From: Liquidambar formosana
Lineage: Eukaryota > Streptophyta > Magnoliopsida > Saxifragales > Altingiaceae
Direction of reading: 5' to 3'
DNA: 64,000 nucleotides
NCBI GenBank assembly: GCA_039720395.1
Contig: JBBPBK010000072.1
Coordinates: forward strand, 248,001-312,000
In this document: positions 7,411-40,903 of the stretch, one piece after another
How positions within the stretch are numbered: the stretch's first letter is position 1
How the letters are laid out: each line of letters starts with the position of its first letter
Translations under genes and position numbers: made by a program
Notes under the pieces: model-generated
Databases searched by the model: none
What the model was told of the DNA's origin: nothing
The model's input: the letters and a program-made list of their open reading frames with translations, nothing else

Positions 7411-9068
7411 TGTTAGGATTATGCCCTAGAGCCAATCATGGAGATGATTGTTTAGGGATTAGGAACAATCATTTGATTTCATTTATGTATGTCACATTTA
7501 TTATTGATTTAATAAAAGGGCTTATTCTATTATGTTTATATGCATCATTTATATTTACATAATATGTCCATGGAGTTAGAGTTGAGAATATGGAATTACA
7601 AAGAGTTGTAATTTTGAGACTATAGATATATCTCTGTACTAAACTCCTAAAGCATTCCTAGTTGAAGGTTCACTATGATGGACAGTAATGAACCAGAGGA
7701 CTAGCACTTGTTAGGTTGACTCTATAGGAGGATAGCTAGTCTCAAGCTATTTGTGTGGAGACACTACAACCAACAAGTGGGTGCCTATTACGAGAATAGG
7801 TACACTGAATGTGACCAAAGATATGAGATAAACTGAATGGAGTTTCTCCTACCTGTCAATCAGTTTCTCATTGTTATAGTGGTACAAGTAATCCTTAGAC
7901 CTGAGACACCATAGTTGTCTTATGCATGTAGCTTTAGAAGTTTGATAACACTAAGTGCAAATCCTATTCATGGGTTTGCAAAGGTGTTCATTGGCCCTAC
8001 TGCTATGTGTATGAAGGCATGTGAGTGATCAACAAGGGATCCATCACTCTCAGGAAAAAGAGAGAGAATGTCTCATATAGCATTCATAATATAACTCATT
8101 AAATCCATGGCCATGGTAGGATGAATATGAAAAGAGTTTCATGAGTTCATCTATGAGTTGATATCTATGAATGAGTATAAAGTAATTGAACTAGGGACTT
8201 GACAGACTTCCATGTCCTATTAGTTCAATTGGAGACATTGTGTTGAAGGAAGGATGCAATTGTAACCTATAAACTATAACAGAAGGGTTCTTTGTAAATG
8301 ACTATTCACCTCATTAAGGACCACACCATGAGCCATATGCTAGGTGTTACTCATGGTTAGTAGAAGCCCTAATTGATATAAGTGAGTTATAATCAATTAG
8401 GGAATTGGAAGGAGTTCCAATTAGACCCTAAATGGAAAGAGTTCCATTGTGCACACCTCGTGCTATTCCTACTACTTAATGATGTGAACCCAATGGGTCA
8501 CACACTGATCATGCAAGAAGGGCTTTAAAGTCTATGAGAGAAAGGGTTTTAGTGAATAAAGAATAGTTCTTTATAGGCCTATTTGTATTTGATACAAATA
8601 ATAGGGGTTAATGTGCAATTAAGTGTAATTACACATAACCCTATTAGGGTTTCTTCCCCATGGCCAGCCCCCTTTAGTGGGCTGCCTATATAAGTCACAC
8701 TTATGTGTGACATGGCATAATAAGGCTTGCACAATAAACCCTAGCCGTCCAGCCCCTTGGAGGCTCTCTTCTCTCTCTCTCTCTTCTCCACTTCTAGCAA
8801 CAACAAGGAAGAAGAAAGAAAAGGCTTGAAGCTCTAGCTAGGTGTGGATACCGTTGGAGGCAGCACACTTGGGCTGCTCATTCACCGCTGTCCGGAATCA
8901 AAGCTTGGAGCAAAAAGGAGAAGACATTAAAACTGTAAGTGTTCTAACCCTCTTCGTAGTTAGGGTTTGATTTTGTGTTATGCATAGTTAGATTCATGGG
9001 ATTGGGAATCGTAGGAAAAATTTTTATATTCCGCACTTCTATTTTTCCCTCTTGTTCGATTCCCAGCA
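7411..9068 (+). repeat. Copia A 5' LTR
   Basis: Starts TGTTAGGATTATGCC and ends GATTCCCAGCA. The TATA box TATATAAG is at 8687-8694, with a hairpin GTCACAC/GTGTGAC (loop TTAT) immediately after it at 8694-8711. At least seven hairpins lie in 8369-8711. One is CCCTAATTGAT/ATCAATTAGGG around a 14-nt loop, and two are AATTGGAA/TTCCAATT (loop GGAG) and AATGGAA/TTCCATT (loop AGAG). A CTCTCTCTCTCTC run lies near 8770. Confidence 0.93.
8580..8640 (+). promoter_or_regulatory. Two covarying hairpins upstream of the Copia TATA box
   Basis: First hairpin: stem TATTTGTAT/ATACAAATA, loop TTG (8580-8600). Second: GGTT, ATGTG and AATTA pair with TAATT, CACAT and AACC around loop AGTG (8606-8640). In the Copia B LTR (31641-31700, minus) both keep the shape. 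In the first, an A-T pair is replaced by G-C. In the second, ATGTG/CACAT becomes TTGTG/CACAA and AATTA/TAATT becomes AATTT/AAATT. Confidence 0.8.
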
Positions 9069-9069
9069 G

Positions 9070-9088
9070 TGGTATCAGAGCCATGATT
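9070..9088 (+). other. Primer-binding site, initiator tRNA-Met type
   Basis: TGGTATCAGAGCCATGATT starts one base after the 5' LTR. TGGTATCAGAGC is the classic plant copia site complementary to the 3' end of initiator tRNA-Met. Confidence 0.95.
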
Positions 9089-12060
9089 ATGCATAATACA
9101 AAATACATATGGGCTGGTAATTATGGTATAGTTGAATGATTCAAAAATCTGGAAAATTTTTCTGCATAATTGGTTTTCCTCCATGGCTGAACCTAGGGTT
9201 TGGAACCCTAGGTCAATTCTCTTCTACTCCTCTTCTAATTGATGGTTAAGTGTAGCTACGGATGCAATAGGTTGCATAGGGTTTGAGTTTGGAGAAGAAG
9301 AATAAGGATTCTAAGGTTTTATAAAACTGTTATGAACAGTTTTCATGGTAGCCATGAAAAACTGTCATCTTGTTTTGCATGCCGAATTCAGAGTTCTTCT
9401 CCAAAATTTTCGAGCCATATATGGTTAGAAAGCTCTTCGAATAAGCTTTTCAACCCAACAAACGGTGCATCAATCCGAGTTCTGTAGTGAAAGTTATGAA
9501 TTTTTTACTACAGGCTGTCTGGAAAGACAGTTTTGCTCGGGAATGATGCAATAGCCACAACTTTGAGTTATTGATGGAGATCAAAGGCATGGAAATGGTT
9601 GCCACCACTTGGGTTATGTTCTAGACATGGTAGGGAAAGGTTCCCAAGCATTTAGATGCATCATAATTGGATTAAGATGCTAGAACAGAAGGAAGAAGGA
9701 GAAGAACACCATGGAGGCTGAATCTGGGTTTTAGAACCCTAAGGTTCTTGCAATTAATTCTAATTAAAGCTGCTGTATTTATGATGGCAAATCATTGTAG
9801 GATCATCATATATCATGTGTATATGATTTTCTTTAAGTTTCAAAAAGGTTTGGATGGAAAAAGATTCAAAAAGTTTGAAAAGTTTTCATGAACAGCATAG
9901 CAGAATTTTTCTGCAGAAAAGTCATCAATGGAGTTTTGATTAGAACTTGAGTTAGGGAACTCCAAATTGCATGAAACCAATTGCATTAGTTTCCTAAGAC
10001 ATGTAGGATACTGGGAAAATTCGTTTGGTAGCCTGACTTAATCATCTTGTTGGGTTTTAAATCAATTTCTGACCATGGACAGTATGCTGTCAAATTCTGG
10101 GCAGCCTACTGTTGTTTTAATTGTTTAGAACAATTGGTGATGATATGATCATCCAAACCTCTTCTATTGGCTTAGTATTTCATGTAGGGACATGATACAA
10201 AAGCTGGTTTCAATGGAGGAGTCGAATTGATAAGGATTTAGAAGCTATTGTGACCTTCAAGGTCTGCAACAATGGCTCCAGCAATGGGTTTTGGAAACCT
10301 TGATTGTTCTTGATGATGGCAGCCACTTCCACCACTTCTCACGTGTCCAGAGGCTTGTCCCACACCCCTAGGATGTTCTCCCATGACTGGCCATGGCCTC
10401 CCACAGTCGTTGGTGGCCATGGCAGCCTAGCCAAGCTCAGGCAGCCCCCTGGTAGTGACGGCTGCATAGAGTTAAGGATGAAACCCTAATTTTGAGTTAA
10501 TGATGAAACCCTAATTTCATTATGGCATTAATTAAAACCCTAATTGGAATATTAATTACCTTAATTAAGAGTTAATGATTGGTCATTAAATGACCAATCA
10601 TGGTTATTGATTGTTAGGGCATAATTAATACCATTAATGATGTATAGGGTTAGGGTTTTGGAAACCCTAATTAGTGTAATTAATTAAGGGTAATTAATAC
10701 CCTATTTGGCATTAATTAAACCCTAATCCCTTTTATTAAATACCATATGAACCTAGGGTTTTAATGATTGGACATTAAATGACCAATCATAAGGCATTTA
10801 ATGATTAGGGCTTGCATTTAGGGTTTAGGGTTATGCATTTAGGATTTAGGGTTTTAGGAAACCCTAATACACTAACTCATCATTTAAATGATTTTATTTA
10901 ATTCCCATGTTAATTATTTAATTAATATTGATTAATTTTATAATGTTTTAAATGGTTTAAAATACAATTGGGGATTAAATTAAAATCTGGAAATTCTTAA
11001 TTAAATGAAATTGTTTTGTTTAAATAAGGAAACCCTAATATTGGATATTAGAGTTATTTTAGGAAACTTTACATGTTTTCTATTAATTTGATTAATTGAA
11101 ACTAAATGTCTTAAATGTTAAGACTTTATTTAATTCTGGATATTTTTGTTTAAACCTAATAAGATTAGGATGCATTAATGAGATTAATGTAAATCATTCA
11201 AGAGAATTACCATAATGCCCATATGTTTTAATGCTTACAGTTTTTCTTTACATTATGCAATGAGATTGTATGTATGTGTTTGGATGATGATTATGGACTA
11301 TACCCCTTAAACCAATTGTGATTGGCCGTCTTATGAATGGGTTGTAATAATTTTTCAAGAGTTGTAATTTTATTATGGTGATGTAATTTATTATTTGGGG
11401 CTTGCATGCCACCTTCCCTCTCTCTTTATCATTCTCTTATGTACCCCACATTCCCCTTATGTATCCCTTTCTATATATTATGTAAATGTTATGTAATCGA
11501 GAGCGCACTAAGGAGCATGGTGGACCCAAAGGAGTATGATGGAGCCCAACAAGCCAATGGTGGAGACCAACAAGCCAATGGTGGAGACCATCAAGCCAAG
11601 GGAGCAGATTGAAGGACTTGAAAGCTTAGAGAAGTTTTTCAAGAAAGCATGCATGTTACGAATGGTTTATTTTACGATCACCTACACCCACCTTAGACCT
11701 TGGATTCAATCTATTGGCTTGGATTGAATCCTCTCAAAGTCCATAATCATCATAGTGGGAGCTTTAATTTATGAGATAATTGTATTAGCTCCAATACCAT
11801 AGTTTGGTATATGTTACCTATTCACTTAGGGACTAATATCAAAATATGGTACTTTATATATGTTGATATATAATAACATGCGATGTATGATTTATAATAG
11901 CATGAGATGTATGATTATAAATAGCATAATTTATATGTTTAAATTTTGATACATAGGATGCATGTTAATTTGATGAGACCCCTTAAAACCCCTCTCTTTT
12001 AATATTAAGTTAAAAATGAAGAAATCATAGGGAATGAATTCTTCATTGCCTTCCATCATT
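9089..12060 (+). other. Copia A leader and gag-position region, non-coding
   Basis: No gag protein can be read. AACCCTAAT-rich palindromes fill 10490-10900. ATGATTGGTCATT pairs with AATGACCAATCAT near 10574, a near copy lies at 10764, and AGGGTTT/AAACCCT hairpins occur several times. CTGTCT/AGACAG with loop GGAA lies near 9518. A short ORF at 11406-11612 has repeats of the residues QANGGD; Copia B has a longer version (36598-36924, minus). I do not recognise its product. Confidence 0.6.
11520..11605 (+). repeat. 21-bp tandem repeat, three copies
   Basis: CAACAAGCCAATGGTGGAGAC is repeated about three times, the last copy changed. It encodes the QANGGD repeats in the short ORF. Copia B keeps fewer copies (about 36735-36780). 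Confidence 0.75.
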
Positions 12061-12085
12061 ATAGGATCATCTAACGTCCCTTAAT

Positions 12086-12470
12086 GTGGGTACCTGGCTG
12101 CAGACATGTAGGAGCTACCCATGTTAAAGACATTACTTGAAACTATCACATATGAGATATCATGGGGTGCCTAAACTGGTATATACCAAGAAACTAACAT
12201 GTGAGGTATATATTTGGCGAAACATACCTGTGTGAATGATGGGTTTAACTTAACTAGGGAAGTATTCCAAGAAACTAACATGTGAGGTGTATGTTCCCTA
12301 GAGGCAAAACGATTGGAACTTGCTTATGAAGCAATAGACAAAGAGTTGTCTTCTTATTGTGGGTTAGAAGCCAAGAAACTAACATGTGAGGCTTCTAGGT
12401 CACAGTGGGACCCCAATCCCCATTAGGAATGAGATTCCCGAATTCCATTAGAGGGTGTATGGAATTTGAT
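12086..12470 (+). repeat. Hairpin series with an invariant 17-nt loop
   Basis: Three hairpins share the loop AAGAAACTAACATGTGA. Their stems are TATATACC/GGTATATA (12180-12212), CTAGGGAA/TTCCCTAG outer with CC/GG inner (12254-12301) and TAGAAGCC/GGCTTCTA (12365-12397). A more diverged relative lies near 12133-12160, and GGGTA/TACCC at about 12088-12121. AATTCCAT/ATGGAATT follows near 12440. Copia B has all three at 35937-36160 on the minus strand; its only change in the 8-bp stems I saw is a C to T that leaves a G-T wobble. Confidence 0.85.
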
Positions 12471-13790
12471 AAAATAGTGGGAGGTACCATATGATTAAAG
12501 ACCCAATCATTATGGATAAAAATGAAATCTAATTCTCTGTTTATGTAGATTACCTAATTACTCACCTCAAAACCCCTATTTCCTAATATATAGGATATTG
12601 ATAGTTTGACTAAACCCGATTTCTTTGATTGACTTAGGAAATTGAGAATTGTTCTTAATTTCAAAAGATTGTTCATATGCTATTAGGCCTTTTCTTAAAG
12701 GCCCTCCATAAAACATCCTAAGAAGAAAAAGACACTATGCGCAATTGGCATCTTGTTGCCATGCTATATGATAGTATTGATGACTAATGAGCTTCAGAAG
12801 CAAAATTAGTCAATGCAAGTGCCTTTGATGTCCTACATCACATACAAAGGTTGTATTATGAGTGAAATAATACTATAAAGTATAGTACTTGTAAAGGACT
12901 TCTTCTGGACTAGGATGTAATAAAAGTTGTTTATTAATAATCATTCTTTTGAAAAATGATTAATCACATAGAATAGCTTGAGAAGCTAGATGTGATTTAA
13001 AATGGAAGCATAGAGGAAAGCAAGTCTTGAAAAGTCAAAGACAAAGAAATATAATTATTTTGTAGTAAATATAAGGTATTGTAAAGGGAACTTGATAAAG
13101 TATCAGTCTTCCTAGAAGAACCAAACTTTTGAAGTTTTGGTTCATGCTCTAAACTAAATTGTTGGTTAGTTCTGCTTCTTGGTTTTTGGATTCTAGTATA
13201 ATCTAAATCGAAGCAGAAAGTTAAGTAGATAATAAGTTACTTTTAAAAATTTTAATAGAGCAAGAGTTGCTAGATTAATTTTGGGAACTTATTTCTTAAC
13301 TAAGTCATTTAAGACATTCTAGAAATTTGATTTCCGAATTTAAATGACTAATTAGAGCGAATGCAACGTATTCCGAGAATACAAGAGATGTAGAGACTCT
13401 CATTTAAATGTAACGATTATGACTTGGTTATGAGATGACCAAACCCATCTTTTACTTGGTGAAGTGAATGAGTTACATTTATAATTTGACTATACATTGT
13501 GATGTATACAGTCATGTAGAGCATGCATTCAATTATAGTAGACTCATCTTAGAATACCATAGCTCAATGGTGAATCTAAGAGAACGAATTGAACCCTATT
13601 AAGATATGGTTTGATCCATGATGAGTTTTACTAATGTATCCATCTAGGATATACCTTAAAATTGCTACATATTGATAATTTAGGGTTCACTCCAGTTTCG
13701 TCCCAATTATATCAGATATGATATGGGAAGAAACCCAATTTAAAGAAGTTAAAGCTTGGGCTTGTGCTACGTTTGTCTGGAAACATAATG
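12470..13790 (+). repeat. Dense hairpin array in the Copia A interior
   Basis: Perfect stems follow each other about every 40-60 bases. Examples are GGCCTTT/AAAGGCC (loop TCTT, near 12688), GACTAAT/ATTAGTC (near 12781), TACTATA/TATAGTA (loop AAG, near 12870), AATCACAT/ATGTGATT enclosing TAGCTT/AAGCTA (12962-12998), AGTCATTTAA/TTAAATGACT (near 13303-13350), GTATTC/GAATAC (loop CGA, near 13369) and TATACAT/ATGTATA (loop TGTG, near 13491). No protein domain is readable. Confidence 0.75.
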
Positions 13791-15430
13791 TAGACAATCT
13801 GGAAATACGGTCAAGTAAGTGTTGAATTGTGGTATATCCCAAAAGTGGTTGGGATAGTATTTCTATTACCCTAATGAACAAAAGTTGTCCATTAGGATGT
13901 TTGCTGGATTTTCTTGAGAAAGAGTTCATTCAAGAAAGATGCAAAAGTAGATAGAATTTATAGAATTGTCTGTAAAGCCACAAACGAACAAAGATCCAAC
14001 CCTTGTCTCTGTTGAGACAAAACCCTTAACTACACTACAATCTTTTCATAGATCAAATTGGATATTTCTTTAACATAAGAGAGATATTGTATCTCCATTA
14101 GAATGTGAAAGAATTGTTCTTTGGTGATAAAGATCACCAAGATAATCCTATTGATTATGATTAGGCGATGTTTGACATCAACTTGAGAAATGACTAAGAG
14201 TCATTAAATCCAATATGGACAAGTAGAGACCTAAAAGGCTTGGCTATTTAAGAATGTTTTCAACATAGGCAAAAAGTTGTCTATAAAGAAACTTGTTAGA
14301 TAATAGTTATGCTGAAATCCATTTGGATCTTGTTATCTATAAACACACATTTTAAATATGAGATATGTCAAAAAGGATATAAAGATGTTATATCAAATGG
14401 TGAAAAACCATAAAAGTGTGTAAGTTATAGAAGTCTATTAATAGACTACAAGGTTCTCATAATTAGAACATCTATAAAGTTGAGGTAATCAAATTGTTTG
14501 ATTTCTCTCATTGTATAGATGGACCATGAGTGTATAAAAGGTTAGTGGGAGTGCGATCGTTTTTCTTTATCCTAAGTATGGATGACATCATAATCATTAT
14601 GAATGATATATGAATGTTATCTAATGTAAAGTTTTAGTTTTTGGAGAAAAACTAATTCATGAAAGATTTGGCAAAAGCATCCAATAAGATCCATAGAGAT
14701 AGATCATATAGATTGCTAAGTATCTCCAAATCATCAAACATAGTTGAAATGTTGAAGGAGTTCAACATGGAGAATTCTAAGGGAGGTCTGATTTACTTCA
14801 GATAAGAATTCATTATTCAAGGGCATGTGCCCTAGGATAACACAAGTAAGATTCTTAAAGTGTTAAGAAGCCTTATTTTACACTATGTATTGAACCTGAT
14901 ATCTATTATGTTGTAATTGTTACAAATAGTTATCAATCAATTCAAATTTGGAATATTGGATTGTATACGGAAATTGTAAACTCATAGTAGATGGGTATAT
15001 GGATTTGGATATAATCCATATGGGGTATATTTTATATTCACTTTAGTTGGTGAAATACTTAATGGAAGAACTGTATGAAAGATACAGTGGATTCCATTAT
15101 TAAGGGTGAATTAATTGTCGCATTGTCTAGGAGACTGTTTGGATCTATAAGTTCATTTAGAACTTAGAGTTGTTCCTTCCATTGAGTTGCCCACACCTTG
15201 TTTTGTGACAACAATGGGTCTATATCTCAAGTATAGGAATCACGGTCTCATCAAAAGTCCAAACACATAGAGCGACAATTCCAAGTGATTAGAGGAATCA
15301 TTGGAAGAGGTAATAGATACATTACAGAAGATATTATCTACATAAGTTTTTGTAGACCTACTGACTAAAGCTTTAAAACATAATTGGTTATGTCTAAGAC
15401 CAACATCTTGAGAAGATAGGTATACGATAC
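13790..15430 (+). pseudogene. Decayed copia pol: end of integrase, reverse transcriptase, RNase H
   Basis: Fragments in shifting frames match plant copia pol. They run in order: a YPK..GW then FLEKEFI trace typical of the integrase C-terminus (near 13830-13930), KVSGSAIVFL (near 14540), EFNMENSK (near 14757), VVPSIELP and TTMG (near 15175-15215), VDLLTKALKH (near 15350). The residues around the YVDD position are lost; the DNA there now reads as a CATAAT/ATTATG hairpin. Stops and frameshifts run throughout, so no protein is made. Hairpins continue here, for example TTGTCTC/GAGACAA (14003-14020), TTGGTGAT/ATCACCAA (near 14121) and ATGTTGAA/TTCAACAT (near 14749). Confidence 0.75.
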
Positions 15431-15450
15431 ATGGTCGATTGGCTTTAGTG

Positions 15451-15462
15451 CAAGTGGGAGAT
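15451..15462 (+). other. Copia A polypurine tract
   Basis: CAAGTGGGAGAT lies directly before the 3' LTR start at 15463. Copia B has the same phrase at 32873-32884 on the minus strand. Confidence 0.9.
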
Positions 15463-17120
15463 TGTTAGGATTATGCCCTAGAGCCAATCATGGAGATGAT
15501 TGTTTAGGGATTAGGAACAATCATTTGATTTCATTTATGTATGTCACATTTATTATTGATTTAATAAAAGGGCTTATTCTATTATGTTTATATGCATCAT
15601 TTATATTTACATAATATGTCCATGGAGTTAGAGTTGAGAATATGGAATTACAAAGAGTTGTAATTTTGAGACTATAGATATATCTCTGTACTAAACTCCT
15701 AAAGCATTCCTAGTTGAAGGTTCACTATGATGGACAGTAATGAACCAGAGGACTAGCACTTGTTAGGTTGACTCTATAGGAGGATAGCTAGTCTCAAGCT
15801 ATTTGTGTGGAGACACTACAACCAACAAGTGGGTGCCTATTACGAGAATAGGTACACTGAATGTGACCAAAGATATGAGATAAACTGAATGGAGTTTTTC
15901 CTACCTGTCAATCAGTTTCTCATTGTTATAGTGGTACAAGTAATCCTTAGACCTGAGACACCATAGTTGTCTTATGCATGTAGCTTTAGAAGTTTGATAA
16001 CACTAAGTGCAAATCCTATTCATGGGTTTGCAAAGGTGTTCATTGGCCCTACTGCTATGTGTATGAAGGCATGTGAGTGATCAACAAGGGATCCATCACT
16101 CTCAGGAAAAAGAGAGAGAATGTCTCATATAGCATTCATAATATAACTCATTAAATCCATGGCCATGGTAGGATGAATATGAAAAGAGTTTCATGAGTTC
16201 ATCTATGAGTTGATATCTATGAATGAGTATAAAGTAATTGAACTAGGGACTTGACAGACTTCCATGTCCTATTAGTTCAATTGGAGACATTGTGTTGAAG
16301 GAAGGATGCAATTGTAACCTATAAACTATAACAGAAGGGTTCTTTGTAAATGACTATTCACCTCATTAAGGACCACACCATGAGCCATATGCTAGGTGTT
16401 ACTCATGGTTAGTAGAAGCCCTAATTGATATAAGTGAGTTATAATCAATTAGGGAATTGGAAGGAGTTCCAATTAGACCCTAAATGGAAAGAGTTCCATT
16501 GTGCACACCTCGTGCTATTCCTACTACTTAATGATGTGAACCCAATGGGTCACACACTGATCATGCAAGAAGGGCTTTAAAGTCTATGAGAGAAAGGGTT
16601 TTAGTGAATAAAGAATAGTTCTTTATAGGCCTATTTGTATTTGATACAAATAATAGGGGTTAATGTGCAATTAAGTGTAATTACACATAACCCTATTAGG
16701 GTTTCTTCCCCATGGCCAGCCCCCTTTAGTGGGCTGCCTATATAAGTCACACTTATGTGTGACATGGCATAATAAGGCTTGCACAATAAACCCTAGTCGT
16801 CCAGCCCCTTGGAGGCTCTCTTCTCTCTCTCTCTCTTCTCCACTTCTAGCAACAACAAGGAAGAAGAAAGAAAAGGCTTGAAGCTCTAGCTAGGTGTGGA
16901 TACCGTTGGAGGCAGCACACTTGGGCTGCTCATTCACCGCTGTCCGGAATCAAAGCTTGGAGCAAAAAGGAGAAGACATTAAAACTGTAAGTGTTCTAAC
17001 CCTCTTCGTAGTTAGGGTTTGATTTTGTGTTATGCATAGTTAGATTCATGGGATTGGGAATCGTAGGAAAAATTTTTATATTCCGCACTTCTATTTTTCC
17101 CTCTTGTTCGATTCCCAGCA
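15463..17120 (+). repeat. Copia A 3' LTR
   Basis: Same length as the 5' LTR. The two changes I found are C to T near 15894 (counterpart near 7846) and C to T near 16797 (counterpart near 8746). Its TATA box is at 16739-16746. The target duplication GGTTA follows at 17121-17125. Confidence 0.93.
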
Positions 17121-17644
17121 GGTTAACCATGGTGCTTCACCGTCGCTAAGCTGGGTTTGTACACAAGGTCGAACCGAATGCTTTCCCAATCGAAAATCGA
17201 TCTTTCTAAACATGTTTAGGACATAAATAAAGCCCAATTGAAGTCAAATGAGAGAAAATTGGTTGGGTCTTATGAGTCGATTTGAGCAAACCAAGAAAGG
17301 GTCTTTTAGCCAACCCGAACCATTACGAGCCGAATTGATCTTAAACCACTGATTCATGAAATTGAACCTATATATGGACTCTATATAACCATATGAACTC
17401 ATGGGAATGACTCGAGATTCATTTCAAGGTCAAATGGAAAATATACGACTTAAAAGACGATTATGCCCTTCAAGTCGCAAAAGTTCTTATTGACCATCGA
17501 GATGAACTCCAAATCACTTCAAAATTCATACACATGATATTCAATGCTATAGAAACTCAATGCAAAAGACTAGACTCAAAAAGGACTCAAAATCCTACAT
17601 GAAGTGATATGCCCTAGCTAAGGTGACAAAAATGGGGTGTGACA

Positions 17645-20580: not shown

Positions 20581-21300
20581 TATTCAAGCCACTACGAATG
20601 AATATGCTTTTCAAATGGGAAGATATATTCAAGTCACGAATATATTTAACCAAGTGATTGAAAATGAGATTTGAGAAGCATATTCAAGGAATGAACATAC
20701 TTTTGAGATGGAGAAATATATTCAAGTCATGAATATACTTAACTAAGAAAGTGACAAAGATTGAGAAGTATATTCAAGTGATGAACATACTTTTGAAATG
20801 GAGAAATATATTCAAGCGATGAATATATTTAACCAAATAAGTGACCAAGATTGAGAAGTATATTCAAGTGATGAACATACTTTTGAAATGGAGAAATATA
20901 TTCAAGTGATGAATATATTTAACCAAGTAAGTGACAAAGATTGAGAAGTATATTCAAGGGATGAACATACTTTTGAAATGGAGAAATATATTCAAGCGAT
21001 GAATATATTTAACCAAGTAAGTGACAAAGATTGAGAAGTATATTCAAGTTATGAACATACTTTTGAAATGGAGAAATATATTCAAGCGATGAATATATTT
21101 AACCAAGTAAGTGACAAAGATTGAGAAGTATATTCAAGTGATGAACATACTTTTGAAATGGAGAAATTTATTTAAGCGATGAATATATTTAACCAAGTAA
21201 GTGACAAAGATTGAGAAGTATATTCAAGGAGTGAATATACTTTTGAAATGGAAAAATATATCCAAGTGATGAATATATTCAACCAAGTGGGATAGGAAAT
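20581..21300 (-). repeat. 90-bp tandem repeat, seven copies, in the Tat1 3' region
   Basis: TTGAGAAG starts a unit at 20671, 20761, 20851, 20941, 21031, 21121 and 21211; a diverged unit precedes them. Each unit is two related halves, and each half is a hairpin. One half is GTATATTCA with TGAACATAC (loop AGTGA; perfect in the last unit as TGAATATAC). The other is ATATATTCA with TGAATATAT (loop AGCGA). ATCAATTC/GAATTGAT with loop AAG follows near 21428. Confidence 0.88.
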
Positions 21301-31196: not shown

Positions 31197-31201
31197 GATG
31201 C

Positions 31202-32872
31202 TGTTAGGAATTGAACTAGAAGGAAATAGAATGCGGAATAACTTGAATAACAAAAATTTCCTATCAATTCCATGCAACCCATGAATCTGATTGTGGTTCA
31301 TACAAAACAATAAAACCCTAATTACAAAGAGAGGGTTTAGAACTTACAGTTGATTATGTCTTCTCCTTTTTACTCCAAGCTTTGATTTCGGACAGCAGTA
31401 AATGAGCAGCCCAAGTGTGCTGCCTCCAACGGTATCCACACCTAGCTAGAGCTTCAAGTCTTTTCCTTCTTCTTCCTTGTTGTTGCTAGAGGTGGAGAAG
31501 AAAGAGAGAGAGAAGAAAGCCTCCAACACTTTGGACGGCTAGGATTGGGAGTGTGCAAGCAAGCCCATGCCATGTCACACATAAGTATGACTTATATATG
31601 CCACACTAAAGGGGCCAGCCCTAGGGGAGAACCCTTTTAGGGTTTTGTGCAATTTCCCTAAATTGCACAATAACCCCTATTGTTTACATCAAATACAAAC
31701 AAGGCCTCAAAGAACTATTCTTTATGCACTCATACCCTTTCTCTCATAGACTTAAAAGATCATCTTGCATGATCAGTGTGTGACCCATTGGGTTCACATC
31801 ATCAAGTATTAGGAATAGCACAAGGTGTGCACAATGGAACTCTTTCCATTTAGGGTCTAATTGGAACTCCTTCCAATTCCCTAATTGATTATAACTCACT
31901 TATATCAATTAGGGCTTCTACTAACCATGAATAACACCTAGCATATGGTTCATGGTGTTGTCCTTAATGAGGTGAATAAGTATCTAACAAAGAACCCTTC
32001 TGTTATAGTTTATAGGTTACAATTGCATCTTTCCTTCAACACAATGTCTCCAATTAAACTAATAGGACATGGAAGTCTGTCAAGTCCCTAGTTTAATTAC
32101 TTTATACTCAATCATGAATATCAACTCATTGATGAACTCATGAAACTCTTTTCATATTCATCCTACCATGGCCATGGATTTAATGAGTTATATTATGAAT
32201 GTTATATGAGACATTCTCTCTCTTTTTCCTGAGAGTGATGGATCCCTTGTTGATCACTCACATGCCTTCATACACATAGCGGTAGGGCCAATGAACACCT
32301 TTGCAGACCCCTGAATAGGATCTGCACTTAGTGTTATCAAACTTCTAAAGCTACATGCATAAGGCAACTATGGTGTCTCAGGTCTAAGGATTACTTGTAC
32401 CACTATAACAATGAGAAACTGATTGACAGGCAGGATAAAACTCCATTCAGTTTATCTCATATCTTTGGTCACATTCAGTGTACCTATTCTCGCAATAGGC
32501 ACCCACTTGTTGATCATAGTGTCTCCACACAAATAGCTTGAGACTAGCTATCCTCCTATAGAGTCAACCCAACAAGTGCTAGTCCTATGGTTCATTACTG
32601 TCCATCATAGTGAACCTTCAACTAGGAATGCTTTAGGAGTTTAGTACAGAGATATATCTATGGTCTCAAAATTACAACTCTTTGTAATTCCATATTCTCA
32701 ACTCTAACTCCATGGACATATTATGTAAATATAAATGATGCATATAAACATAATAGAATAAGCCCTTTTATTAAATCGATAATAAATGTGATATACATAA
32801 ATGAAATCAAATGATTGTTCCTAATCCTTAAACAATCATCTCTATGATTGGCTCTAGGGCATAATCCTAACA
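31202..32872 (-). repeat. Copia B 3' LTR
   Basis: Minus-strand start TGTTAGGATTATGCC at 32872, end CAATTCCTAACA at 31202. It carries the counterparts of the Copia A LTR hairpins. At 31641-31675 the stem bases differ from Copia A on both arms but still pair. Confidence 0.92.
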
Positions 32873-34640
32873 ATCTCCCACTTGCACTGAAGCCAATCAA
32901 CCATGTATCGCATACTTATCTTCTTAAGATGTTGGTCTTAGACATAACCAATTATGTTTTAAAGCTTTAGTCAGTAGGTCTACAAAAACTTATGTAGATA
33001 ATATCTTCTATAATGTATCTATTACCTCTTCCAATGATTCCTCTAATCACTTGGAATTGCCGCTCTATGTGTTTGGACTTTTGATGAGATCGTGATTCTT
33101 ATACTTGAGATGTAGACCCATTGTTGTCACAAAACAAGGTGTGGGCAATTGAATGGAAGGAACAACTCCAAGTTCTTAATTAATGAACTTATAGATCCAA
33201 ACAGTCTCCTAGACAATGCGATAATTAATTTACCCTTAATAATGGAATCCACTGTATCTTTCATACAGTTCTTCTATTAAGTATTTCACCAACTAAAGTG
33301 AATATAAAATATACCCCATATGGATTATATCCAAATCCATATACCCATCTACTATAAGTTTACAATTTCCATATACAATCCAATATTCCAAATTTGAATT
33401 GACTGATAACTATTTGTAACAATTACAACATAATAGATATCAGGTTCAATACATAGTGTAGAATAAGGCTTCTTAACACTTTAAGAACCTTACTTGTGTT
33501 ATCCTAGGGCACATGCCCTTGAATAATGAATTCTTATCTGAAGTAAATCAGACCTCCCTTAGAATTCTCCATGTTGAACTCCTTCAACATTTCAACTATG
33601 TTTGATGATTTGGAGATACTTAGCAATCTATATGATCTATCTCTATAGATCTTGTTGGATGCTTCTACCAAATCTTTCATGAATTAGTTTTTCTCCAAAA
33701 ACCAAAACGATTAGGATGTCATTCATATATCATTCATAATGATTAGGATGTCATCTATACTTAGGATAAAGAAAAACGATCGCACTCCCACTAACCTTTT
33801 ATACACTTATGGTCCATCTATACAATGAGAGAAATCAAACAATTTAATTACTTCAACTTTATAGATGTTCTAATTATGAGAACCTTGTAGTCTATTAATA
33901 GACTTCTATAACTTACACACTTTTATGGTTTTTCACCATTTGATATAACATCTTTATATCCTTTTTGACATATCTCATATTCAAAATGTGTGTTTATAGA
34001 TAACAAGATCCAAATGGATTTCAGCATAACTATTATCAAACAAGTTTCTTTATAGACAACTTTTTGCCTATGTTGAAAACATCCTTAAATAGCCAAGCCT
34101 TTTAGGTCTCTACCTGTCCATATTGGATTTAATGACTCTTAGTCATTTCTCAAGTTGATGTCAAACATCGCCTAATCATAATCAATAGGATTATCTTGGT
34201 GATCTTTATCACCAAAGAACAATTCTTTCACATTCTAATGGAGATACAATATCTCTCTTATGTTAAAGAAATATCCAATTTGATCTATGAAAAGAATGTG
34301 GTGTAATTAAAGGTTTTGCCTCAATAGGGGCAAGGGTTGGATCTTTGTTGGTTTGTGGCTTTACAAATAATTCTGTAAATTCTATCTACTTTTGCATCTT
34401 TCTTGAATGAACTCTTTCTCAAGAAAATCCAGCAATCATCCTAATGGACAACTTTTGTTCATTAGAGTAATAGAAATATTATCCCAACCACTTTTAGGAT
34501 ATACCACAATTCAACACTTACTTGGCCTTATTTCCAGATTGTCTACATTATGTTTCCAGACAAACGTAGCACAAGCCCAAGCCTTAACTTCTTTAAGTTG
34601 GGTTTCTTCCCATATCATATCTGATATAATTGGGACAAAA
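32873..34640 (-). pseudogene. Copia B polypurine tract and decayed pol
   Basis: The polypurine tract is at 32873-32884. The rest is the counterpart of 13790-15450 in Copia A, with the same broken pol trace and hairpins. Paired changes include TTGTCTC/GAGACAA in Copia A against TTGCCCC/GAGGCAA here (34316-34333): one T-A pair became C-G, a second position became a mismatch. A region of about 20 bases near 33720-33750 is duplicated (ATTAGGATGTCAT). Confidence 0.75.
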
Positions 34641-37200
34641 CTGGAGTGAACCCTAAATTGTCAATATGTAGCAATTTTAAGGTATATCCTAGATGGATAC
34701 ATTAGTAAAACTCATCATGGATCAAACCATATCTTAATAGGGTTCAATTTGTTCTCTTAGATTCACCATTGAGCTATGGTATTCTAAGATGAGTCTATTA
34801 TAATTGAATGCATGCTCTACATGACTGTATACATCACAATGTATAGTCAAATTATAAATGTAACTCATTCACTTCACCAAGTAAAAGATGGGTTTGGTCA
34901 TCTCATAACCAAGTCATAATCGTTACATTTAAATGAGAGTCTCTACATCTCTTGTATTCTCGGAATACGTTGCATTCGCTCTAATTAGTCATTTAAATTC
35001 GAAAATCAAATTTCTAGAATGTCTTAAATGACTTAGTTAAGAAATAAGTTCCCAAAATTAATCTAGCAACTCTTGCTCTATTAAAATTTTTAAAGGTAAC
35101 TTATTATCTACTTAACTTTCTGCTTCGATTTAGATTATACTAGAATCCAAAAACCAAGAAGCAGAACTAACCAACAATTTAGTTTAGAGCATGAACCAAA
35201 ACTTCAAAAGTTTGGTTCTTCTAGGAAGACTGATACTTTATCAAGTTCCCTTTACAATACCTTATATTTACTACAAAATAATTATATTTCTTTGTCTTTG
35301 ACTTTTCAAGACTTGCTTTCCTCTATGCTTCCATTTTAAATCACATCTAGCTTCTCAAGCTATTCTATGTGATTAATCATTTTTCAAAAGAATGATTATT
35401 AATAAACAACTTTTATTACATCCTAGTCCAGAAGAAGTCCTTTACAAGTACTATACTTTATAGTATTATTTCACTCATAATACAACCTTTGTATGTGATG
35501 TAGGACATCAAAGGCACTTGCATTGACTAATTTTGCTTCTGAAGCTCATTAGTCATCAATACTATCATATAGCATGGCAACAAGATGCCAATTGCGCATA
35601 GTGTCTTTTTCTTCTTAGGATGTTTTATGGAGGGCCTTTAATAAAAGGCCTAATAGCATATAAACAATCTTTTGAAATTGAGAACAATTCTCAATTTCCT
35701 AAGTCAATCAAAGAAATCGGGTTTAGTCAAACTATCAATATCCTATATTAGGAAATAGGGGTTTCGAGGTGAGTAATTAGGTAATCTACATAAACAAAGA
35801 ATTAGATTTCATTTTTATCCATAATGATTGGGTCTTTAATCATATAGTACCTCCCACTATTTTATCAAATTCCATACACCCTCTAATGGAATTCGGGAAT
35901 CTCATTCCTAATGGGGATTGGGGTCCCACTATGACCTAGAAGCCTCACATGTTAGTTTCTTGACTTCTAACCCACAATAAGAAGACAACTCTTTGTCTAT
36001 TGCTTCATAAGCAAGTTCCAATCATTTTGCCTCTAGGGAACATACACCTCACATGTTAGTTTCTTGGAATACTTCCCTAGTTAAGTTAAACCCATCATTC
36101 ACACAGGTATGTTTCGCCAAATATATACCTCACATGTTAGTTTCTTGGTATATACCAGTTTAGGCACCCCATGATATCTCATATGTGATAGTTTCAAGTA
36201 ATGTCTTTAACATGGGTAGCTCCTACATGTCTGCAGCCAGGTACCCACATTAAGGGACATTAGATGATCCTATAATGATGGAAGGCAATGAAGAATTCAT
36301 TCCCCAATGATTTCTCCATTTTCAACTTAATATTAAATAAGAGGGGTTTTAAAGGGTCTCATCAAATTAACATGCATCCTATGTATCAAAATTTAAACAT
36401 ATAAATTATGCTATTTATAATCATACATCTCATGCTATTATAAATCATACATCGCATGCTATTATATATCAACATATATAAAGTACCATATTTTGATATT
36501 AGTCCCTAAGTGAATAGGTAACATATACCAAACTATGGTATTGGAGCTAATACAATTATCTCATAAATTAAAGCTCCCACTATGATGATTATGGACTTTA
36601 AGAAGATTCAATCCAAGCCAATAGATTGAATCCAAGGTCTATTGTAGGTGTAGGTGATCGTAAAACATTCAATGGAAACATGCATGCATTCTTGAAAGTC
36701 TTCTCTAAACTTTCAAGTCCTCCAATTCCTCCATGAGCTTGATGGTCTCCACCATTGGCTTGTTGGGCTCTACTATGCTCTTTTGAGTCCACCATGCTCC
36801 TTAGTGCGCTCTCGATTACATAACATTTACATAATTTAAAGAAAGGGATACATAAGGGGAATGTGGGGTACATAAGAGAATGATAGAGAGAGTGAAGGAG
36901 AAAAAGGTGGCATGCAAGTCCCAATTAAAAATTAAATCACCATAAATAAATTACAACCCTTTGAAAAATATTTCATAACCCATAAGACAGCCAATCACAA
37001 TTGGTTTAAGGGGGCTTAGTCCATAATCATCATCCACACACAATTATACAATCATATTGCATAAATAAAAGTACTGTAAGCAATTAAAACATATGGGCAT
37101 TATGGTAACGCTATTAATTGGACTTCATTAATCTCATTAATGCTTCCTAATCTCATTAGGGGACCTCAAAATATCATATCCAAAATTAAAATAATGAAAA
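34641..37200 (-). repeat. Copia B hairpin array and unknown short ORF
   Basis: Counterpart of 11300-13680 in Copia A. The three constant-loop hairpins are at 35937-36160. An open frame at 36598-36924 (108 codons) shares the SALRSMVD and QANGGD phrases with 11406-11612 of Copia A. I do not recognise it. It lies where gag would be expected, but no zinc knuckle is present. Confidence 0.6.
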
Positions 37201-37208
37201 TGGTAATG

Positions 37209-37610
37209 TTTTATTAATTTCTAAAATTAGAATTTCCTAAACCCTAATTTAGAAATCAATTATTGAATTAAAACTCCTTTTAATCAATAATTTTCAAAGA
37301 TTATTTTAATCTATTCTAGTGTGATTTTAACTCTTTAAAACATTGAATTTTGATCAATCATATTAATCAAAATTACTAGAATAATTGAAACAACTTAATA
37401 AAACAAAATGAATGGCATTTATTAATTTCTAAAATTAGAATTTCTAAAACCCTAATTTAGAAATCAATTATTGAATTAAAACTCCTTTTAATCATTTAAT
37501 TTCCCAAAATTATTTTAATCTATCCTAACATGTTTTAACTCTTTAAAACATCTAATTTTGATCAATCATATTAATCAAAATCATTAGAATAATTAAAACA
37601 ATTAAATAAT
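37209..37610. repeat. 209-bp tandem duplication inside Copia B
   Basis: TTTATTAATTTCTAAAATTA starts at 37209 and again at 37418, and the two copies match with few changes for about 190 bases. Copia A has no such duplication in the matching region (10900-11150). Confidence 0.8.
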
Positions 37611-39217
37611 ACTAACTAGTATCTAATACTATAGTATTAGGAATTAACTTAAATAAATAAAACAATTTTATTTAAATAAAAAATTCCAGAAAATAAATTT
37701 ATTCCAAAATTGCTTTAAACAATTTAAAACATCTTAAAATTAATCAATATTAATTATATAATTAATTTCGGAATTAATTTAATTTGGGAGAAATCAAATT
37801 TTAAATGTATTAGGGTTAGGGTTTCATAAACTCAAACCCTAATGCATTTAATTAGAACCGGGTTCATTAATGACCAAGGCTGGTCATTAATGTCATAATT
37901 AGAACCCTAATAGGACACATTAATGAGGGTAATTAGGGTTTCTAAAACCCTAGTACACATAGGATTAGGGTTTCCTATGAAAACCCTAATTTCCGAAAAT
38001 AGGAGGCTGCCATGGAGCTTCCATGGCTGCCACGATCCACCCATGGCTGCTGCCAGCCTATGCCAGGCCTTGGGGCACTCTCCTACATCTGGGACAATCA
38101 TCACAGAGGTGGTGATTAAGGGCCAAGAGCCCTAGGTCGAATTTGGGAGGGGTTTCCATAAACCCTAGCTGCTGCCTGCTGAAGAAGATGAAGCTTCAAA
38201 GAAGCTTTCATGGCTGCCACGATCCAACCATGGCTGCCCAAGCTTTGGCAACCCTCAAGTCATATCTCCATATGATTTTCGACCCCCATAGGTGAGATTT
38301 AATTGATCAAATCAAGCCCAAACAGCCGCTGCAAATAAATCTATGAAGATTATCCAGAAAATTTCAGCAAAACGATAATGAAGAGAATGGGTTCTAAAAC
38401 CCTAGAAGATGCCATCTAATGGCTGCCGCACCACTTGGGGTTTATCCCCTAGTGTCCCACGATTCTAATAGAGGTGGTTTCATGCCCTGCCTTGCTCCTA
38501 TGAAGAAGATACATGCCAATAACCACGGCTGTATCATGCTGCCCAGAAAACTGCTTTGCTGGAAAATTTTAAAACTCAAACTTTTTGATTGTTTTTAATT
38601 CAAAACTCATACCAACATCAATGATAAACATATATACAATATATATATTAAATCTATGATCATTCATAATGATTTTGATGGAAGAGAATGAACAAAAACC
38701 AGAAAACTAACCTGGGTTTTTCAAGAACCCAGATTCAGCCTCTTCAAGAACTTCAATCTTGTTTTTCTTTTAAATTCGATTTTTAATGTATCAAATACAT
38801 ATAGTAATTATATATACAGTATATATAATTGTATATAATCATCATATGATTAATAAATCAAATTAATATAAGAAGAAGATGAAGAACAACCTAGAGTTCC
38901 ATTCCCGCGTAAAACTGTCTTTCCAGACAGCCTGTAGTAAAAAAATCATAACTTTCTCTACAGAGCTCGGATCGATGAACCGTTTGTTGGGTTTGAAAGC
39001 TGATTCGAAGAGCTTTCTAACCATATATGGCACGAAAATTTTGGAGGAGAACTCAAATTTTGGCATGCACAACAAGATGACGGTTTTTCATGACTATCAT
39101 GAAAACTGTTCATAACAGTTTTATAAAACCCTAGTTTTCTTAAAACTAATTAGAACACCAATGTCCAATTTATTGTACCATAAATACCAGCCCATATGAT
39201 GTTTGTATGAAGCACAA
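37611..39217 (-). other. Copia B leader region
   Basis: Non-coding. It has strong palindromes: CATTAATGACCA/TGGTCATTAATG with loop AGGC (37865-37892), TTAGGGTTT/AAACCCTAA near 37965, CCATGGA/TCCATGG near 38009. CTGTCT/AGACAG near 38927 is also in Copia A. Confidence 0.6.
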
Positions 39218-39234
39218 CCATGGCTCTGATACCA
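39218..39234 (-). other. Copia B primer-binding site
   Basis: On the minus strand TGGTATCAGAGCCATGG follows the 5' LTR after one base, the initiator tRNA-Met type. Confidence 0.95.
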
Positions 39235-39235
39235 C

Positions 39236-40903
39236 TGTTAGGAATTGAACTAGAAGGAAATAGAATGCGGAATAACTTGAATAACAAAAATTTCCTATCA
39301 ATTCCATGCAACCCATGAATCTGATTGTGGTTCATACAAAACAATAAAACCCTAATTACAAAGAGAGGGTTTAGAACTTACAGTTGATTATGTCTTCTCC
39401 TTTTTACTCCAAGCTTTGATTCCGGACAGCGGTGAATGAGCAGCCCAAGTGTGCTGCCTCCAACGGTATCCACACCTAGCTAGAGCTTCAAGTCTTTTCC
39501 TTCTTCTTCCTTGTTGTTGCTAGAGGTGGAGAAGAAAGAGAGAGAGAAGAAAGCCTCCAACACTTTGGACGGCTAGGGTTGGGAGTGTGCAAGCAAGCCC
39601 ATGCCATGTCACACATAAGTATGACTTATATATGCCACACTAAAGGGGCCAGCCCTAGGGGAGAACCCTTTTAGGGTTTTGTGCAATTTCCCTAAATTGC
39701 ACAATAACCCCTATTGTTTACATCAAATACAAACAAGGCCTCAAAGAACTATTCTTTATGCACTCATACCCTTTCTCTCATAGACTTAAAAGCTCATCTT
39801 GCATGATCAGTGTGTGACCCATTGGGTTCACATCAAGTAGTAGGAATAGCACAAGGTGTGCACAATGGAACTCTTTCCATTCAGGGTCTAATTGGAATTC
39901 CTTCCAATTCCCTAATTGATTATAACTCACTTATATCAATTAGGACTTCTATTAACCATGAATAACACCTAGCATATGGTTCATGGTGTTGTCCTTAATG
40001 AGGTGAATAAGTATCTAACAAAGAACCCTTCTGTTATAGTTTATAGGTTACAATTGCATCCTTCCTTCAACACAATGTCTCCAATTAAACTAATAGGACA
40101 TGGAAGTCTGTCAAGTCCCTAGTTTAATTATTTTATACTCAATCATGAATATCAACTCATTGATGAACTCATGAAACTCTTTTCATATTCATCCTACCAT
40201 GGCCATGGATTTAATGAGTTATATTATGAATGCTATATGAGACATTCTCTCTCTTTTTCCTGAGAGTGATGGATCCCTTGTTGATCACTCACATGCCTTC
40301 ATACACATAGCAGTAGGGCCAATGAACACCTTTGCAGATCCCTGAATAGGATCTGCACTTAGTGTTATCAAACTTCTAAAGCTACATGCATAAGGCAACT
40401 ATGGTGTCTCAAGTCTAAGGATTACTTGTACCACTATAACAATGAGAAACTGATTGACAGGCAGGATAAAACTCCATTCAGTTTATCTCATATCTTTGGT
40501 CACATTCAGTGTACCTATTCTCGCAATAGGCATCCACTTGTTGATCGTAGTGTCTCCACACAAATAGCTTGAGACTAGCTATCCTCCTATAGAGTCAACC
40601 TAACAAGTGCTAGTCCTATGGTTCATTACTGTCCATCATAGTGAACCTTCAACTAGGAATGCTTTAGGAGTTTAGTACAGAGATATATCTATAGTCTCAA
40701 AATTACAACTCTTTGTAATTCCATATTCTCAACTCTAACTCCATGGACATATTATGTAAATATAAATGATGCATATAAACATAATAGAATAAGCCTTTTT
40801 ATTAAATCAATAATAAATGTGACATACATAAATGAAATCAAATGATTGTTCCTAATCCCTAAACAATCATCTCTATGATTGGCTCTAGGGCATAATCCTA
40901 ACA
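39236..40903 (-). repeat. Copia B 5' LTR
   Basis: Same termini as the 3' LTR. Substitutions and short indels against 31202-32872 are frequent (for example near 39431, 39590, 39835, 40383), far more than in Copia A. Confidence 0.92.

What the first reader, a model, noticed from the sequence alone, without database searches (positions are those of the whole stretch)
12086..15430. A dead copia pol region recast as a continuous array of hairpins
In the Copia A interior the protein frames are destroyed, yet perfect stems follow each other about every 40-60 bases, mostly with loops of 3-7 bases (TTG, AAG, GAG, GGAG, AAAG, TGTG, AGTG). I counted about 17 stems of 7 bp or longer with loops of 7 or less in 3.3 kb; a rough estimate for random AT-rich sequence is 2-4. 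The YVDD-coding site has itself become a CATAAT/ATTATG hairpin. Such density argues for selection on RNA or DNA structure, or for a mutation process (template switching in reverse transcription) that turns imperfect palindromes into perfect ones. I know of no description of it.
Basis: partly seen in the sequence, partly recalled or inferred. Interest (0 to 1): 0.88.

Follow-up and report, generated by a model that had tools for sequence, protein, structure and literature searches.

The report
G-loop hairpin array in dead Copia
A plant jumping element whose enzyme gene is broken by many stop codons carries about 70 small hairpins with a G at the end of the loop, a kind almost absent from its opposite strand; selection on its RNA has likely kept them, and they would let a helper element's capsid protein pick up this RNA.

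Summary
In detail: 17 perfect stems (7 bp or more, loops 3-7) against 1.9 in shuffles. The excess spans the whole element (7411-17120) and a second copy (31201-40903, minus strand). Its carrier is directional: short loops ending in G with A/T closing pairs. Copy A has 32 (loops 3-7) against 0.8 expected in element sense, 1 against 0.2 on the other strand. Of 20 preset 10-kb genome samples, only the two holding family members show strong strand bias; 12 open-frame Copia segments do not. Between subfamilies, changed pairs in loop-G hairpins keep sense-strand pairing in 23 of 35, against 29% in control pairs (p 1.4e-5); other hairpins do not, and four of five within-subfamily comparisons are at control level. 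Three paralogous hairpins share a 17-base loop on different stems.

This is likely an RNA-level hairpin array kept by selection while the non-autonomous element moved. My committed mechanism, inferred only, is dispersed recognition sites for a helper Gag. Some tests were negative, no helper was found, and nothing was tested at the bench.

The parts
7411..17120 (+). Copy A: complete insertion of a non-autonomous Copia-type element (5-base target duplication GGTTA at 7406-7410 and 17121-17125)
   Evidence: LTRs 1658 b each, 2 differences (both C/T), TG...CA ends, target duplication
7411..9068 (+). 5' LTR of copy A; carries G-loop hairpins of its own (e.g. 7433 GGAG, 7594 AGAG, 8403 GGAG, 8431 AGAG)
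   Evidence: 12 motif hairpins (5 bp or more) vs 1.4 expected in sense, 2 vs 1.2 on the other strand
9069..9085 (+). Primer-binding-like site (GTGGTATCAGAGCCATG; match to initiator-methionine tRNA is recalled, not tested)
   Evidence: sequence
9069..11128 (+). 5' interior; 9546-10650 found no blastn alignment with copy B except short blocks, yet is equally rich in motif hairpins
   Evidence: (alignable blocks): 9070-11128 26 vs 1.9 sense; 9546-10650 13 vs 1.1
12086..15430 (+). The finding's interval: broken pol with 33 motif hairpins of 5 bp or more (expected 3.4) in sense, 2 (2.4) on the other strand
12172..12222 (+). Paralogous hairpin 1: 17-base loop AAGAAACTAACATGTGA on stem GTATATACC/GGTATATAT
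   Evidence: (z -2.0)
12252..12304 (+). Paralogous hairpin 2: same loop, stem CTAGGGAA...TTCCCTAG
   Evidence: (z -2.1)
12352..12408 (+). Paralogous hairpin 3: same loop, stem AGAAGCC/GGCTTCT with outer pairs; -23.5 kcal/mol, z -5.0
12871..12887 (+). G-loop hairpin TACTATA-AAG-TATAGTA
12918..12936 (+). G-loop hairpin TAATAAA-AGTTG-TTTATTA
13491..13508 (+). G-loop hairpin TATACAT-TGTG-ATGTATA
13835..13856 (+). G-loop hairpin TATCCCAA-AAGTGG-TTGGGATA (one C-G pair here is T-G in 5 of the 6 copies compared)
14121..14140 (+). G-loop hairpin TTGGTGAT-AAAG-ATCACCAA
14189..14205 (+). G-loop hairpin AATGACT-AAG-AGTCATT
14376..14394 (+). G-loop hairpin GATATAA-AGATG-TTATATC
14407..14784 (+). Remnant of the Copia reverse transcriptase (RVT_2), frame broken
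   Evidence: E 5.7e-5, 23.3 bits, below Pfam cut-off 31.6
14487..14503 (+). G-loop hairpin AATCAAA-TTG-TTTGATT
14593..14607 (+). G-loop hairpin ATCATT-ATG-AATGAT over the presumed former catalytic site
14634..14655 (+). G-loop hairpin TTAGTTTTT-GGAG-AAAAACTAA (one A-T pair here is G-T in copy B)
14749..14768 (+). G-loop hairpin ATGTTGAA-GGAG-TTCAACAT
14852..14869 (+). G-loop hairpin TTCTTAA-AGTG-TTAAGAA
15070..15088 (+). G-loop hairpin ACTGTAT-GAAAG-ATACAGT
15446..15462 (+). Polypurine-like tract before the 3' LTR
   Evidence: sequence
15463..17120 (+). 3' LTR of copy A
8611..8636 (+). Hairpin with two A-T/T-A pair swaps between A (ATGTGCAATTA-AGTG-TAATTACACAT, one C-A mismatch) and B (TTGTGCAATTT-AGGG-AAATTGCACAA)
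31201..40903 (-). Copy B: second subfamily, same hairpin array in its own sense (31 vs 0.4; 3 vs 0.6 on the other strand)

Best explanation
The interval is part of a complete insertion of a non-autonomous plant Copia retrotransposon with broken frames, and its sense strand carries about 70 short hairpins, mostly with 3-5-base loops, that end in G, likely maintained by selection on the element's RNA and predicted to serve as dispersed binding sites by which a helper element's Gag would package it. Shown: the hairpins, their strand specificity, the loop motif, family specificity in what was sampled, and preserved pairing between subfamilies. Inferred: that selection rather than mutation is the cause, and that it acts on RNA.
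For: Excess over shuffles. Motif in sense (stems of 7 bp or more, loops 3-7, A/T closing): A 32 vs 0.8 against 1 vs 0.2; B 31 vs 0.4 against 3 vs 0.6. Last loop base G in 27 of 38 three-base and 19 of 27 four-base loops in A, 28 of 37 and 22 of 33 in B; no significant bias for loops of 6 or more. RGAG loops 8 of 27 and 13 of 33. Parts of A and B that do not align with each other are equally rich. In 20 preset genome samples the strong bias appears only in the two with family members; 12 open-frame Copia segments of the same genome have 7 vs 3.3 in sense, 4 vs 2.4 antisense. A versus B (stem 5 bp or more, loop 3-8 ending in G): changed pairs 6 compensatory, 17 G-U, 4 A-C, 8 other; control kept 2379 of 8183; non-motif hairpins 14 of 40; hairpin-cluster bootstrap 0.49-0.82 against 0.29. 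B versus five A-type copies 16:6, 14:7, 17:9, 12:5, 13:10; A versus the same five 6:16, 8:10, 10:21, 5:2, 7:16. Three paralogous hairpins, one loop, different stems: 83.9% paired vs 69.3 shuffled, covariation 0.536 vs 0.281, each 0 of 500. Precedents: HIV-1 NC knuckle F1 binds the last G of GGAG and GGUG loops and F2 the second G (passages of PMC7599994); HBV core protein recognises RGAG loops dispersed over its RNA (passages of PMC8677749); BARE2, a parasitic Copia element, is packaged in BARE1 particles (passages of PMC3735527).
Against: No helper element or Gag was found: the 12 open-frame Copia segments fetched are only remotely similar to the dead pol. Overall folding energy is only modestly low and alike on both strands (z -1.45 sense, -1.53 antisense). 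Standing single mismatches in 9-position stems show no G-T over A-C preference (A 8 and 8, B 8 and 6); in loop-G stems of 7 positions it is 11 and 6 in A, 13 and 6 in B. The last G is not more conserved than other loop bases (62 of 67 vs 181 of 198). A test anchored on copy A over eight aligned copies or pieces, changes shared by two or more, gave 6 kept and 10 broken, not significant. An earlier A/B test over all hairpins with stems of 7 or more gave 4 of 5 double changes compensatory vs 61 of 173, p 0.06. A LTR against the L024 LTR gave 2:6. The B comparisons share B and are not independent; one within-subfamily comparison (L002) gave 5:2. In the paralogue test only 4 rows are distinct, and two measures are unremarkable (both-side pairs 5 vs 3.7, further types 11 vs 9.2). 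In HIV-1, replacing the GGAG loop hardly affected packaging (PMC7599994).
Confidence: 0.42

Rival explanations
1. The same sense-strand hairpins are selected, but for a different reader: a host RNA-binding protein, a nuclease or Dicer escape, RNA compaction, nuclear retention, or a pause signal for reverse transcriptase, not Gag.
For: All the evidence for selection applies equally, and nothing here names the protein. Maize work links local hairpins in transposons to small RNAs (abstract and introduction start of PMC10760457).
Against: A loop motif repeated along the whole RNA including the LTRs suits a coat-like protein better than a single regulatory site (inference); the RGAG/NNG loops resemble known Gag and core-protein targets.
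Confidence: 0.3
2. A mutation process: snap-back template switching, in reverse transcription or DNA replication, writes perfect short-loop stems, with a sequence preference that leaves G at one side of the loop. No function is needed.
For: Loops of 3-4 are sharply favoured (35 and 25 vs 2.2 and 2.5, then 6-8 each for loops 5-8). Some A/B differences look like one-step homogenisation (7956, 8611). The window outside A and B has a 2.7-fold excess at loops 3-4, a plausible background of this kind. Template switching is proposed to create and maintain hairpins (PMC8794818, passages).
Against: It should also produce non-motif hairpins, which are fewer (44 stems of 7 bp or more in A, 32 with the motif). 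It gives no reason for G-U 17 against A-C 4 in the sense strand, for the contrast between and within subfamilies, or for near-absence in 12 open-frame Copia segments copied by the same kind of enzyme.
Confidence: 0.22
3. Ordinary quasi-palindrome background of AT-rich plant DNA, over-read by eye.
For: Eighteen random genome regions without the family hold 2.4-fold more short hairpins than shuffles (533 vs 223), some of it AT microsatellite.
Against: The motif count in the interval is 21 vs 0.60 in sense and 1 vs 0.62 antisense; those background regions show 41 vs 26 and 44 vs 30, without strand bias.
Confidence: 0.03

Closest known systems
Dispersed RNA packaging signals of hepatitis B virus (loop RGAG), and of single-stranded RNA viruses
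   Same: Several stem-loops spread along one RNA with a common loop motif, here including RGAG itself (PMC7612645 abstract and outline; PMC8677749 passages).
   Different: Different element class; no binding or assembly data here; three-base NNG loops dominate in number; the RNA has no long open frame in the interval.
Retroviral Psi hairpins (HIV-1 SL2/SL3) bound by nucleocapsid zinc knuckles
   Same: Exposed G at the last loop position, and second position in four-base loops, as in GGAG and GGUG (PMC7599994 passages).
   Different: Psi is one compact leader structure (recalled); here about 70 hairpins span leader, dead pol and LTR. The HIV GGAG loop can be replaced with little effect (same source).
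BARE2, parasitic on BARE1 (barley, Copia)
   Same: Non-autonomous Copia element packaged in another element's particles (PMC3735527 passages).
   Different: BARE2 cannot make Gag but keeps dimerisation and packaging signals (same passages); here the pol frames are broken too and the array covers the element. A hairpin array is not described in the passages seen.
Template-switch hairpins (Monttinen and Loytynoja 2022)
   Same: Perfect short stems, compensatory change (PMC8794818 passages).
   Different: One-strand loop motif, G-U preference and family specificity are not part of the model in the passages seen.

Membership tests
LTR retrotransposon, complete insertion | Two near-identical LTRs, TG...CA ends, short target duplication | tested here: met
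   2 differences in 1658 b, GGTTA duplication
Copia superfamily | Reverse transcriptase of the RVT_2 kind | tested here: inconclusive
   5 of the 15 tiles were searched, one matches, E 5.7e-5 but 23.3 bits, below the 31.6 cut-off; none of the 12 open-frame Copia segments is close
Copia superfamily | Order of integrase before reverse transcriptase | tested here: inconclusive
   no integrase match in the five tiles searched
Non-autonomous element moved in trans | Broken frames but recent, repeated movement | tested here: met
   83-96 stops per frame; 40 scored copies of 1705 first-look candidates, 99-100% identical over 800 b of the broken region
Non-autonomous element moved in trans | A helper element that supplies Gag and Pol | tested here: inconclusive
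   one search lists 150 Copia matches, many with open frames; 12 were fetched, none close
Dispersed packaging-signal array | Many stem-loops with a shared loop motif on the packaged strand | tested here: met
   (element sense; that this strand is packaged is established for LTR elements, not tested)
Dispersed packaging-signal array | Stems kept by compensatory change among variants | tested here: met
   contrary or null results (A LTR vs L024)
Dispersed packaging-signal array | Binding of the coat or Gag protein to the loop | not testable with these tools
   needs protein and RNA
Template-switch product | Perfect arms without a strand-specific loop motif | tested here: not met
Retrozyme or other Rfam RNA | Match to a described RNA family such as a hammerhead | tested here: not met
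   0 matches at gathering score

The most novel reading that the evidence does not exclude
A retrotransposon lineage that gave up protein coding and turned its whole 8-kb RNA into a repeated capsid-recognition code: about 70 hairpins whose loops end in G, free to vary in sequence as long as the stem pairs and the G is shown, making it a super-competitor for a helper's Gag. The nearby GAA/TGTC-loop hairpins at 1-1817 hint that other families may have their own loop codes.
Probability: 0.3. Interest if true: 0.93.

Novelty: new variant of a known kind. Interest (0 to 1): 0.8.

Why it matters
What marks a plant LTR-retrotransposon RNA for packaging is, to my knowledge, poorly known; even for yeast Ty3 the cis signals are 'not precisely defined' (PMC11381356 passage). 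A family with probably more than a thousand copies (1705 first-look candidates) and an explicit loop motif makes this testable with short RNAs. It would also show how a parasite of a parasite can trade protein coding for RNA recognition, and it gives a simple one-strand statistic to search for in other genomes.

Tried and rejected
Chance and composition: rejected. Excess of any repeat kind: rejected for the interval, where mirror and direct repeats are at chance. Known RNA family: none. tRNA: none. Whole-genome property: rejected on 20 samples and 12 Copia segments. Thermodynamic stability of the whole strand as the signal: weak and equal on both strands. Exact patterns of this family in viral contigs and prokaryote contigs: none; the other Copia frame (58999-59814) in viral contigs: none confirmed. 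Protein relatives of one dead reverse-transcriptase tile: none at E 0.001. Closest helper among 12 open-frame Copia segments: none close. A-anchored multi-copy test: not significant, reported as evidence against. In one search eight aligned copies or pieces were compared hairpin by hairpin; only those aligned over a given hairpin count (3-7). Absence from print rests on ten searches of an open-access library, where most subscription papers are missing. The other Copia at 57401-60400 has 4 vs 1.0 motif hairpins and none on the other strand: too few to judge. Rows dropped: 7 of 13 A/B blocks (out-of-register matches) were left out; gapped hairpins were set aside (6 of 73) and. 'Motif' means loop ending in G plus an A/T closing pair, and loop ending in G alone.
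Full report
What was claimed and whether it is there. One search finds exactly 17 (stem 7 bp or more, loop 3-7). Shuffles that keep dinucleotides give 1.89 (largest 7 of 300); block shuffles and a second-order Markov model give much the same. Mirror and direct repeats of equal size are at chance in the interval.

What it sits in. Copy A is a complete insertion, 7411-17120: two LTRs of 1658 bases with 2 differences, TG...CA ends, a 5-base target duplication, a primer-binding-like site and a polypurine-like tract. The pol-like region has 83-96 stops per frame and no open stretch above 49 codons; one of five tiles searched (of 15 made) matches RVT_2, below the cut-off. Copy B lies at 31201-40903 on the minus strand. 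A and B are 96-99.6% identical in the eight 500-base bins from 11911 on, but only 56-69% in 9411-10910. The host assembly has 718 Mb; a query with 800 bases of the interval gave 1705 first-look candidates, of which the 40 scored are 99-100% identical. That the host is a plant is inferred from a gypsy-type frame in the window whose best named matches are Castanea and Vitis proteins. So the element moved recently although this part of its code is broken.

Sorting the hairpins by loop shows a one-strand motif. In A the last loop base is G in 27 of 38 three-base and 19 of 27 four-base loops; in B 28 of 37 and 22 of 33; for loops of 6 bases or more there is no significant bias. Three-base loops are chiefly TTG, ATG, TAG, AAG, TGG; four-base loops favour AGAG and GGAG. 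The closing pair is A-T or T-A in 35 of 38 and 24 of 27 in A. Stems of 7 bp or more with such loops (3-7 bases): 32 vs 0.8 expected in A sense, 1 vs 0.2 on the other strand; 31 vs 0.4 and 3 vs 0.6 in B; 12 vs 3.2 and 4 vs 3.8 in the rest of the window, by window strand. A non-overlapping list of loop-G hairpins, which also admits one mismatch and any closing pair, has 68 in A and 71 in B, median spacing 68 bases. LTR, 5' interior and pol all carry them, including 5' parts of A and B that do not align with each other.

Is it peculiar to this family? Twenty 10-kb regions were taken at preset coordinates. Only two show a marked strand bias: L010 (3 and 27), which holds a family copy on the minus strand, and L024 (7 and 2), which holds a family LTR. 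The next most lopsided are L016 (4 and 0) and L018 (1 and 4). Twelve open-frame Copia segments of the same genome (22.7 kb, chosen from 150 listed) have 7 vs 3.3 in sense and 4 vs 2.4 antisense, where the interval alone has 21 vs 0.60 and 1 vs 0.62. The 18 random regions without the family have a general 2.4-fold excess of short hairpins without strand bias: a background on which the family motif stands out.

Is the pairing preserved? Between A and B, base pairs in loop-G hairpins that changed are 6 compensatory, 17 G-U, 4 A-C and 8 other: 23 of 35 keep sense-strand pairing. Control pairs at the same distances keep it in 2379 of 8183, and hairpins without the loop G in 14 of 40 (p 1.4e-5 and 0.39). 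Resampling whole hairpin clusters gives 0.66 (0.49-0.82) against 0.29. G-U against A-C, 17 to 4, points to the sense strand (p 0.007, or 0.014 against control pairs). B compared with five A-type copies repeats this (16:6, 14:7, 17:9, 12:5, 13:10), while A compared with four of the same five copies, where most changes probably arose after insertion, is not above control (6:16, 8:10, 10:21, 7:16); the fifth, L002, gave 5:2, and also 5:2 for non-motif hairpins. This is what selection during the moving life of the lineage, followed by neutral decay, would give. The B comparisons share B and are not independent. Contrary results: an A-anchored test over eight aligned copies or pieces, counting changes shared by two or more, gave 6:10; an earlier A/B test over all hairpins gave p 0.06 for the compensatory share of double changes and p 0.009 per pair; A LTR against L024 gave 2:6, B LTR against L024 6:4; standing mismatches in 9-position stems show no G-T preference; the last loop G is not more conserved than other loop bases.

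Paralogous hairpins. A 19-base sequence recurs three times in each copy (12188, 12269, 12373 in A). Each time it forms the apical part of a hairpin, with the same 17-base loop but a different stem (z -2.0, -2.1, -5.0). Across the four distinct rows 83.9% of cells pair (shuffled 69.3, 0 of 500) and covariation is 0.536 (shuffled 0.281, 0 of 500; slid registers 0.06-0.33); the number of pairs changed on both sides (5 vs 3.7) and of further pair types (11 vs 9.2) are within the shuffled range. Pairing without sequence identity suggests a structure that matters.

How it most likely works. Shown: structure potential, strand, motif, family specificity in what was sampled, retained pairing between subfamilies. 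Inferred: selection on the RNA. Committed mechanism, predicted: the loops are read by a Gag zinc knuckle supplied by another element. In HIV-1 the first knuckle binds the last G and the second knuckle the second G of the GGAG and GGUG loops (PMC7599994, passages); the four-base loops here have G at both places in 12 of 27 (A) and 17 of 33 (B). HBV core protein recognises RGAG loops scattered over its RNA (PMC8677749, passages). A parasitic Copia element packaged by a relative's Gag is known in barley (PMC3735527, passages). Against it: HIV tolerates replacement of the GGAG loop, Ty1 Gag has no zinc finger (PMC4974528, passages), and no helper was found here. Which reader it is stays open; a host protein is the nearest rival.

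Template switching. It is proposed to create and maintain hairpins (PMC8794818, passages), and two A/B differences look like single arm-copy events (7956, 8611). It may supply the raw stems and much of the background. It does not by itself account for a one-strand loop motif, the G-U preference, or the contrast within and between subfamilies.

Novelty. Ten literature searches (listed under Tried and rejected) found no description of such an array in an LTR retrotransposon; the library is open-access only. By what it works like, it belongs with dispersed packaging signals; membership is unproven because binding was not testable.

Noticed in passing
1-1817: Another hairpin-rich stretch with its own loops: GAA in 7 of 8 three-base loops with stems of 6 bp or more (five different stems, at 338, 720, 1322, 1680, 1784) and TGTC in 6 of 8 four-base loops, partly in an 80-bp tandem array. 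It may be a second family with a different loop motif.
   Followed up: partly
20598-21288: A 90-bp tandem array whose unit holds an 11-bp stem AAATATATTCA with 5-base loops AGCGA or AGTGA.
   Followed up: no
9411-10910 versus copy B: A and B are 96-99.6% identical over the dead pol but largely unalignable in the 5' interior and 82-89% at the LTR 3' end: a mosaic, perhaps from recombination in mixed particles.
   Followed up: partly
L005:3-2500: A piece of another family copy (interior just after the LTR) lies in inverted orientation and abuts the 5' LTR of the first copy.
   Followed up: no
listing: Among the 150 listed RVT_2 matches is a large group with nearly equal scores and open frames of 1044-1047 codons, probably a recently active Copia family; the segment L034 from it and the similar L035 have 11 and 12 short hairpins against about 2 expected, with little of the G-loop motif.
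   Followed up: no
57401-60400: A different, less decayed Copia element (RVT_2 end at 58999-59817, below cut-off) with 4 motif hairpins vs 1.0 on its strand and 0 on the other: too few to judge.
   Followed up: partly
10650-10870: TTAGGGTTT/AAACCCTAA (telomere-like words) form stems repeatedly in the 5' interior of both copies.
   Followed up: no
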